DNA from: Bacteroidales bacterium
GTDB lineage: Bacteria > Bacteroidota > Bacteroidia > Bacteroidales > UBA1402
Reading direction: 5' to 3'
Assembly (NCBI GenBank): GCA_017380635.1
Contig: JAFODP010000016.1
Coordinates: 1 to 64,000, forward strand
Length of the DNA stretch: 64,000 bases
The translations under genes were made by a program, and so were the position numbers. Every line of letters starts with the position of its first letter. Within the stretch, counting starts at the first letter, position 1. Under the pieces are notes generated by a model. That model saw nothing but the letters and a program-made list of their open reading frames with translations. It did no database searches and was not told where the DNA came from. Positions 5,879 to 48,592 of this stretch are shown in pieces.

Positions 5879-6589
5879 TTATTCTTCGAAGATGATATTA
5901 TCTAGGCAGACGTAGGCGGGCGTGTTCATGCCCCAAATACCCATATCGCTCGAAGCAAAATCAAATGCAAGTTTGTTCACTTCTCCCAATGAAGTCAAAT
6001 CGATAACAGTCCATGTATTGGGCAAATATTGTTTTCCCTCGCGAAAATCGGCTAAGTAAATCTCTTTGGAGGTCGTTTCTATGCCCTGAGCATCGTAGCC
6101 ATGAATAATAAGCTTGAAATAATCGCCATCGACGAACTTCTTGGAAAAATCATCACCATTTTTCATCGAAAGATAAGGATAGGTAGCATTGCAGAAAGCC
6201 ATCGATTTGAAACGATGTTCCGAAGCATCCGTAAAGGCAATTTCGTAGATTTCCGCAGAACCTGACTCGCGGCGAAAAAAGAGGGCAAAATTATCGCCAC
6301 TGGCAGCCGCTCCGGCCGCCACACTGTATTGGTTGAGATAACCGGATGTTTCCGTATCGGTTTGATTACTAACAACGAAACCTTGCCACGAATCCCATTC
6401 GGCATTATAGGAATGACCGAAACGAAGCGGCAAAGTCTCTTTCTGATAAGCTTGCTGATGAAGATAACCTTGCGAAGGCAGTGTCAGTTCATCAAAATCG
6501 ATGGTTACATAATTTTTTTCTTCCTCTTGCGGACGGCAAGATGCAAGCAACATAGCAACAGCTGCCAAGATGACAAATTGTTTTTTCAT
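5879..6589 (-). CDS. DUF4465 lipoprotein under a cobalamin riboswitch
   Basis: The 236-residue protein starts MKKQFVILAAVAMLLASC with a lipobox (LLASC, lipidated Cys18), so it is a lipoprotein, probably surface exposed. The body matches DUF4465: ITIDFDEL-type start (here VTIDFDEL), WDSWQGFVVSN, and a C-terminal jelly-roll-like segment ending AYVCLDNIIFEE. The ATG at 6589 was chosen because it begins the signal peptide. The only obvious control signal upstream is a cobalamin riboswitch, so expression should respond to vitamin B12. A role in cobamide capture or in a B12-dependent process is inferred; no cobalamin-binding residue can be named. Confidence 0.85.
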   Translation of the reverse strand: MKKQFVILAAVAMLLASCRPQEEEKNYVTIDFDELTLPSQGYLHQQAYQKETLPLRFGHSYNAEWDSWQGFVVSNQTDTETSGYLNQYSVAAGAAASGDNFALFFRRESGSAEIYEIAFTDASEHRFKSMAFCNATYPYLSMKNGDDFSKKFVDGDYFKLIIHGYDAQGIETTSKEIYLADFREGKQYLPNTWTVIDLTSLGEVNKLAFDFASSDMGIWGMNTPAYVCLDNIIFEE

Positions 6590-6607
6590 TGTAAAAAAAC
6601 TTTTTTC

Positions 6608-6634
6608 TTCGAGCGAAAAATCCACGCACTCGAA
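6608..6634 (-). promoter_or_regulatory. Hairpin in the 5' UTR between riboswitch and start codon
   Basis: On the minus strand TTCGAGTG and CGCTCGAA can form an 8-bp stem (one G-U pair) ending about 20 nt before the DUF4465 ATG and followed by A- and T-rich sequence. It is a candidate expression-platform hairpin, either terminating or hiding the ribosome-binding site. No competing pairing with the aptamer was worked out. Confidence 0.35.
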
Positions 6635-6711
6635 AGAGATAAAACAAATGGGAAAAAGAAGAAAAATTGCACCATTATTTTTGCTCTTATTCCCGAAAGC
6701 ATTAACACAAT

Positions 6712-6895
6712 GAACTTGGCAGGTTTTCTGACTTGGTTCGATTTTGTCTTCCTTCCCATCTTTGCAGACAGTGGATTGTGTAGCAGAACTTTAACAAAAC
6801 CTGTAATGAACCTTACAGCAGCGGGCACTGTTCCGGATTCTCACCGGATTCCCTTTTACTTGGCTTCCGTCATGGAAAATCAAGTCACCAAATTC
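6712..6895 (-). promoter_or_regulatory. Cobalamin (B12) riboswitch aptamer
   Basis: Read on the minus strand, the sequence carries the ordered conserved blocks of the cobalamin aptamer: GGGAAT and CCGGTGAGAATCCGG (about 6838-6857), then CAGTGCCCGCTGCTGTAA (6813-6830), CCACTG and GGGAAGG in the middle, and the B12 box AGTCAGAAAACCTGCC at 6718-6733. This is a strong match by eye to the Rfam cobalamin family. It lies in the leader of the DUF4465 lipoprotein gene and would repress it when adenosylcobalamin is abundant. Outer boundaries are approximate. Confidence 0.92.
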
Positions 6896-6948
6896 GTCGG
6901 CGAAAGTAGTCAAATTATTTTATTACAGCAAGAATGATAAATAATCAT

Positions 6949-48343: not shown

Positions 48344-48460
48344 GTCTCCCTCTATTGCAATTCGTCTATCACAATAGTACTTTTGTATCAAAGTCGTGCT
48401 GTTTATATTTTGGGAAACTCATCAAATTAATCTAAACACCGAGACAAGCTTGGCTTTCCA

Positions 48461-48592
48461 ATGGCGGGCTACAACCTTTCAGGTTGCTGTAGTGGCACAG
48501 TAGATTACAAAGGAATTCCGGCACTCAAATCCTGTTACTCGGAGTTTTCGCAAATCACTCAGCACGACTTATTTTTTTTTGCAATGTGGTAA
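48461..48592 (+). CDS. Questionable 43-codon small ORF
   Basis: An ATG frame with Cys residues near the start (MAGYNLSGCCSG) that ends in a poly-Phe stretch from a T9 run. It lies in the 413-bp gap between rplT and the DUF2807 gene. No ribosome-binding site or family is evident, and the DNA at 48470-48494 can form a hairpin, so it could equally be a relic of a repeat. Reported because the gap otherwise holds only the two hairpins. Confidence 0.15.
   Translation: MAGYNLSGCCSGTVDYKGIPALKSCYSEFSQITQHDLFFFAMW

What the first reader, a model, noticed from the sequence alone, without database searches (positions are those of the whole stretch)
5879..6895. Cobalamin riboswitch controlling a DUF4465 lipoprotein
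All conserved blocks of the cobalamin aptamer, including the B12 box, precede a lone lipoprotein gene, with no BtuB, BtuFCD or cobamide biosynthesis gene next to it. DUF4465 has no settled function. Regulation by B12 and a probable surface location make it a candidate cobamide-capture or cobamide-linked surface protein, in the spirit of the accessory lipoproteins known in Bacteroides B12 uptake loci.
Basis: partly seen in the sequence, partly recalled or inferred. Interest (0 to 1): 0.6.

Follow-up and report, generated by a model that had tools for sequence, protein, structure and literature searches.

The report
Riboswitch-controlled vitamin B12 capture lipoprotein
A gut-type Bacteroidales bacterium has a vitamin-B12-sensing RNA switch in front of a single gene for a surface protein of the DUF4465 family, a family recently shown to bind B12 tightly; the gene is therefore a very likely B12-capture protein, ordinary in kind, though it stands alone and away from the B12 transporter genes.

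Summary
Rfam's cobalamin riboswitch matches window 6907-6701 on the minus strand (99.5 bits, cut-off 31.5). It lies 130 nt before a 236-aa lipoprotein gene (6589-5879, minus strand) that is PF14717/DUF4465 (E 2e-55). No btuB, btuG or btuC match is on the contig.

The guess of cobamide capture is now strongly supported, but DUF4465 is no longer of unknown function. Papers of 2025-26 show that BtuJ1, BtuJ2 and six other members bind B12, with crystal structures. The window protein keeps all six BtuJ1 ligand residues examined, and its predicted fold matches BtuJ1 best.

The riboswitch-DUF4465 pair is conserved: 11 of 11 DUF4465 genes in its taxonomic family have the switch. In same-genus genomes it heads a DUF4465-btuG-PKD-btuB-btuF-btuC operon. 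Among 43 named loci with at least 5 kb visible on both sides, 38 have the switch, and 19 of those are solo. In its own genome this is the only cobalamin riboswitch found; btuB-btuG, btuF-btuC and methylmalonyl-CoA mutase lie elsewhere.

Verdict: a new member of a known kind. The modest new point is the conserved solo arrangement, with the capture protein under B12 control while the btuB-btuG pair shows no riboswitch.

The parts
6901..6908 (-). Bacteroidota-type -7 promoter box (TACTTTCG, one mismatch to TAnnTTTG) just upstream of the aptamer; position inferred
   Evidence: All 11 family members have a TAnnTTTG-like box 26-55 nt upstream of the GGGAA core; the window's has one mismatch
6701..6907 (-). 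Cobalamin riboswitch aptamer (RF00174)
   Evidence: cmscan 99.5 bits, E 1.2e-23, full length; only copy found in the genome
6718..6734 (-). B12 box AAGTCAGAAAACCTGCC
   Evidence: Sequence; near-invariant in 17 family riboswitches
6590..6700 (-). Leader between aptamer and start codon (expression platform, mechanism unresolved); a GCTTTCGGGA...AGC hairpin follows the aptamer in most context-A relatives
   Evidence: the start-codon sequestration seen in the window's own fold is not conserved
5879..6589 (-). DUF4465 (BtuJ-type) lipoprotein gene, 236 aa
   Evidence: PF14717 E 2.1e-55; PDB relatives 9HMU, 9FCT/9QPM (BtuJ1), 9I2L (BtuJ2), 4JQR, 4E9K
6536..6589 (-). Lipoprotein signal peptide MKKQFVILAAVAMLLAS-Cys18, followed by RPQEEEK (acidic, LES-like)
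   Evidence: Sequence; a lipobox Cys is present in all 11 family members and invariant in alignment A2; LES rule from PMC5080379
5894..6400 (-). DUF4465 domain (residues 64-232)
5912..5929 (-). HI-loop motif MNTPAY (residues 221-226) containing the B12-binding Asn222, Thr223 and Tyr226
   Evidence: Aligned to BtuJ1 MNTPSY, N241/T242/Y245 (PMC12751083)

Best explanation
A monocistronic, B12-repressed gene for a BtuJ-type cobamide-capture lipoprotein. When intracellular cobamide is low, the riboswitch lets the gene be expressed. The lipoprotein goes to the outer membrane (probably outside, possibly on vesicles), binds cobamides in a tyrosine-rich pocket at one end of a beta-jellyroll, and supplies them to BtuG/BtuB encoded elsewhere in the genome, and then to BtuF/BtuC, for use by methylmalonyl-CoA mutase. 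When cobamide is plentiful the aptamer binds it and shuts the gene off. Shown here: riboswitch, domain, conserved ligand residues, predicted fold, conservation of the pairing, presence of uptake genes elsewhere. Inferred from relatives: B12 binding, repression by B12, surface or vesicle location, hand-over to BtuG/BtuB.
For: Riboswitch 99.5 bits. DUF4465 E 2e-55. Six of six BtuJ1 ligand residues examined identical at 35% overall identity. AF2 model (mean pLDDT 79) matches BtuJ1 9QPM/9FCT first (E about 3e-13 to 6e-13, TM 0.69-0.71), then 9HMU, 4JQR and BtuJ2. The riboswitch directly precedes all 11 DUF4465 genes in the family's 13 genomes. It heads DUF4465-btuG-PKD-btuB-btuF-btuC operons in same-genus genomes. 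In 80 named loci, 64 have a riboswitch upstream on the same strand. The genome has btuB-btuG, btuF-btuC, a PduO-type adenosyltransferase and methylmalonyl-CoA mutase but no CbiC, so it looks like a cobamide scavenger. Published: eight DUF4465 proteins bind B12 (PMC13398666); BtuJ1 Kd about 0.15-0.85 nM, riboswitch operons repressed by B12, BtuJ enriched in vesicles and able to deliver B12 from them (PMC12751083).
Against: No assay on this protein or this RNA. Not in a btu operon, so hand-over to BtuB is inferred. The acidic run after Cys18 starts at +5, later than the best-studied export signals, so surface exposure is likely, not proved. The expression platform could not be resolved. The model rests on only 11 sequences, and its full-length rmsd to BtuJ1 is large (about 6.5 A).
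Confidence: 0.87

Rival explanations
1. The protein is B12-regulated but has drifted to another ligand or role (for example a glycan- or corrinoid-precursor-binding jellyroll), so it does not capture cobamides.
For: Jellyroll folds often bind sugars; weak structural matches to carbohydrate-binding modules appear far down the list. No neighbouring btu gene.
Against: All six BtuJ1 cobalamin-contact residues examined are kept, the HI-loop MNTPAY is almost identical to that of BtuJ1, and eight divergent family members all bind B12 (PMC13398666).
Confidence: 0.05
2. A B12-loaded vesicle or shared-pool device: the protein mainly works on outer-membrane vesicles released from the cell, as described for BtuJ1/BtuJ2, rather than as a partner of the cell's own BtuB complex.
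For: BtuJ-bearing vesicles were the only ones able to deliver B12 in B. theta (PMC12751083). The solo transcription unit apart from btuB-btuG fits a function not stoichiometrically tied to BtuB.
Against: No vesicle evidence in this lineage. Related DUF4465 genes are often the first gene of btuB operons, which fits a cell-bound role too. The two roles are not exclusive.
Confidence: 0.3
3. The solo arrangement is a decayed remnant: an ancestral btu operon moved away and left riboswitch and DUF4465 behind with little function.
For: Same-genus genomes carry the full operon headed by DUF4465; those proteins are only 26-27% identical to this one.
Against: The solo unit beside trmD, the dihydroorotate dehydrogenase gene and/or the kor genes is kept in three genera with intact reading frames, lipobox and promoter box, and ligand residues are conserved; solo units are common in other Bacteroidales.
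Confidence: 0.05

Closest known systems
BtuJ1 (BT_1491) and BtuJ2 (BT_1957) of Bacteroides thetaiotaomicron, DUF4465/IPR027828
   Same: Same Pfam domain, lipoprotein, control by a cobalamin riboswitch, same ligand residues (W78, Y97, Y146, N241, T242, Y245 of BtuJ1), best structural match
   Different: 35% identity to BtuJ1; encoded alone beside trmD instead of in a btu operon; B12 binding of this copy untested
D5EK51 (Coraliomargarita akajimensis) and other DUF4465 proteins shown to bind B12 (PMC13398666)
   Same: Same domain and a similar HI-loop motif; best sequence match in the PDB by E-value (9HMU)
   Different: Other phyla; different N-terminal strands and loops
BtuG (DUF5074 propeller) and BtuH accessory lipoproteins of Bacteroides btu loci
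   Same: B12-capture lipoproteins encoded in cobalamin-riboswitch loci of Bacteroidota
   Different: Unrelated folds; normally in btuB loci
Cobalamin riboswitch RF00174
   Same: Full-length match including the B12 box
   Different: Controls a lone accessory gene rather than btuB, btuFCD or cob genes

Membership tests
Cobalamin riboswitch (RF00174) | Covariance-model score above the curated threshold over the whole aptamer | tested here: met
   99.5 bits against 31.5, positions 1-189
Cobalamin riboswitch (RF00174) | B12 box and conserved core blocks | tested here: met
   AAGTCAGAAAACCTGCC and CCCGCTGCTGT, CCACTG, GGGAAGG
Cobalamin riboswitch (RF00174) | Ligand-dependent repression of the downstream gene | not testable with these tools
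   Shown for B. theta btu operons (PMC12751083), not for this leader; expression platform unresolved
DUF4465 / BtuJ-type B12-binding proteins | PF14717 domain above cut-off | tested here: met
   188 bits against 25, profile 2-176 of 176
DUF4465 / BtuJ-type B12-binding proteins | Conserved B12-contact residues (HI-loop N-T-x-x-Tyr, DE-loop Tyr, AB-loop Tyr, Trp78 of BtuJ1) | tested here: met
   N222, T223, Y226, Y137, Y84, W65
DUF4465 / BtuJ-type B12-binding proteins | Augmented beta-jellyroll fold | tested here: met
   Predicted model only: mean pLDDT 79, TM about 0.7 to 9FCT/9QPM
DUF4465 / BtuJ-type B12-binding proteins | Lipoprotein or other export signal | tested here: met
   Lipobox LASC, Cys18 invariant in 11 relatives; no signal-peptide program was run
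DUF4465 / BtuJ-type B12-binding proteins | High-affinity B12 binding | not testable with these tools
   Established for eight relatives (PMC13398666, PMC12751083)
btu operon accessory gene | Encoded in a locus with btuB/btuG/btuFCD | tested here: not met
   No btuB, btuG or btuC match on this contig; btuB-btuG on C21, btuF-btuC on C49; met in same-genus genomes
Surface-exposed lipoprotein (LES rule) | Polar/charged residue then acidic residues at +2 to +6 after Cys | tested here: inconclusive
   C-RPQEEEK: the acidic run starts at +5; most relatives have acidic residues at +2 to +5 (PMC5080379)

The most novel reading that the evidence does not exclude
In this lineage B12 control has been moved from the transporter to the capture protein: the only cobalamin riboswitch in the genome governs a free-standing BtuJ-type lipoprotein, while btuB-btuG sit in another operon without a riboswitch. 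That would make regulated capture, possibly on released vesicles, the adjustable step of B12 acquisition.
Probability: 0.35. Interest if true: 0.45.

Novelty: new member of a known kind. Interest (0 to 1): 0.3.

Why it matters
It extends the recently defined DUF4465/BtuJ family to a conserved, free-standing, riboswitch-controlled unit in a largely uncultured Bacteroidales family. It also gives a simple rule for annotating B12-capture genes: a cobalamin riboswitch directly before a DUF4465 gene, with or without btuB nearby. A genome in which only the capture protein appears to be under B12 control is a clean test bed for whether BtuJ proteins act with the cell's own BtuB or as detached scavengers.

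Tried and rejected
Start-codon sequestration as the switch mechanism: the window's own fold pairs UUCAUUGU, just after the aptamer, with ACAAUGAA over the start codon, but none of ten relatives keeps it (best complement 4-6 nt); rejected. Intrinsic terminator: no convincing stem plus T-run between aptamer and ATG on the minus strand. DUF3078 as an operon partner: it follows DUF4465 in the window and in G007 but is divergent in G001 and G003 and has its own TACTTTTG promoter box in the window; rejected. A hidden riboswitch before the genome's btuB-btuG: a permissive Rfam search of the 18 kb around it found none. The first alignment of riboswitches mixed strands and was redone. A literature search for solo riboswitch-DUF4465 units found no description in the held library.

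Full report
What is there. On the minus strand of the window a full cobalamin riboswitch (6907-6701; RF00174, 99.5 bits, E 1.2e-23) precedes a 236-aa lipoprotein gene (6589-5879) of the PF14717/DUF4465 family (E 2.1e-55). The B12 box ends about 130 nt before the ATG. A Bacteroidota-type -7 box (TACTTTCG) lies just upstream of the aptamer, and a matching TAnnTTTG-like box stands in the corresponding place in all ten relatives. The divergent neighbour is trmD. The next gene on the same strand is a DUF3078 protein, followed by an L-serine dehydratase. DUF3078 has its own promoter-like box and is not co-directional in G001 and G003, so the DUF4465 gene looks monocistronic (inference).

What the protein is. 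DUF4465 is no longer of unknown function. BtuJ1 and BtuJ2 of B. thetaiotaomicron were shown to bind cobalamin in crystal structures 9FCT and 9I2L, to be encoded in riboswitch-controlled operons repressed by B12, and to be needed for B12 delivery by extracellular vesicles (PMC12751083). Six further divergent members bind B12 too, so binding is a common function of the family (PMC13398666). The window protein is 35% identical to BtuJ1 over the aligned 175 residues and has the same residue at each of six BtuJ1 contact positions examined: W65, Y84, Y137, N222, T223 and Y226 for W78, Y97, Y146, N241, T242 and Y245. An AlphaFold2 model from 11 sequences (mean pLDDT 78.7) matches the two BtuJ1 entries best (E 3e-13 to 6e-13, TM about 0.7), then the other solved DUF4465 proteins. 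A profile search agrees.

How general the pairing is. The held part of its taxonomic family has 13 genomes in three genera. Eleven have exactly one DUF4465 gene, and every one of the eleven has a cobalamin riboswitch directly upstream on the same strand. In eight of them the pair stands alone beside trmD, with the dihydroorotate dehydrogenase gene and/or the kor genes next to it in most. In G005 and G006, and as far as the short contig shows G008, it opens an operon DUF4465 - DUF5074 (BtuG) - PKD protein - TonB receptor (BtuB) - periplasmic binding protein (BtuF) - FecCD permease (BtuC). A collection-wide search gave 80 named loci, mostly Bacteroidales, some Saprospiraceae, Desulfobacterales, Planctomycetes and others. 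A riboswitch model built from 17 family sequences finds a switch upstream on the same strand in 64 of them. Among 43 loci with at least 5 kb on both sides, 19 are solo riboswitch-DUF4465 units, 15 are riboswitch-DUF4465 next to btu genes, 4 have a gene between switch and DUF4465, and 5 have no switch. The sample was picked by a DNA pattern over the HI-loop motif and is biased to relatives of this protein, so these are not unbiased frequencies. PMC13398666 reports co-location with TonB barrels for 40% of its main cluster, which agrees with many members standing apart from btuB.

The host genome. It has 2.34 Mb in 54 contigs, 96.9% complete. It holds one DUF4465 gene and one detectable cobalamin riboswitch. 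A btuB-btuG pair lies on contig C21, overlapping the end of the gene before it in what looks like a four-gene operon; a permissive Rfam search around it finds no riboswitch. G007 has the same layout. A second BtuB-like receptor starts 165 bases from the end of C21, so its leader is unseen. A btuF-btuC pair lies on C49. CbiC is absent, a PduO-type adenosyltransferase is present, and methylmalonyl-CoA mutase is the only B12-binding-domain protein found. The bacterium is therefore probably a cobamide scavenger that uses B12 at least for methylmalonyl-CoA mutase.

How it most likely works. At low cobamide the gene is on; the lipoprotein is exported (lipobox; acidic residues after Cys18 resemble the Bacteroidota export signal of PMC5080379, though shifted) and binds cobamides outside the cell; BtuG/BtuB take them over; when the cell is replete the aptamer represses the gene. 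Binding, repression, location and hand-over are inferred from relatives. The switching mechanism itself is unresolved: a start-codon-sequestering helix in the window is not conserved, and no clear terminator was found.

Verdict. The novelty it hoped for (a function for DUF4465) has since been published. What remains modestly new is the conserved solo, riboswitch-controlled arrangement and the apparent restriction of B12 control to the capture protein in this genome.

Noticed in passing
L184:7119-13070 (Roseimaritima sediminicola); L174:5694-8912 (Rhodopirellula sp.): Planctomycete proteins with three DUF4465 domains plus a dockerin (1984 aa) and with two DUF4465 domains; a cobalamin-riboswitch-like hit lies upstream on the same strand in both loci, with another open reading frame in between. 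Possible multivalent B12-binding proteins.
   Followed up: partly
L171:7257-8894, L142:7536-10364, L177:6765-9227: Bacteroidales DUF4465 proteins ending in a Por secretion (type IX) tail, one with two DUF4465 domains, each upstream of btuB-btuG and behind a cobalamin riboswitch.
   Followed up: partly
L130, L132, L148: In Muribaculum sp. An289 and Candidatus Merdivivens the DUF4465 match lies between tRNA genes with no cobalamin riboswitch, suggesting a mobile or differently regulated copy.
   Followed up: no
window 48392-48575 (+): Bacteroidales-1 RNA (RF01693, suggested 6S RNA), 130 bits.
   Followed up: no
G000 contig C50:143547-143906: A stand-alone protein of about 250 aa resembling the MetH reactivation domain, also in several relatives; no MetH B12-binding domain was found in G000, so methionine synthase may be split, lost or in an assembly gap.
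   Followed up: no
L091:8496-15010 (G000 contig C21) and L094:1629-8269 (G007): btuB-btuG placed at the end of an apparent four-gene operon behind an approximately 850-aa protein with a signal-like N-terminus and a 294-aa protein, with no riboswitch, in two same-genus genomes.
   Followed up: partly
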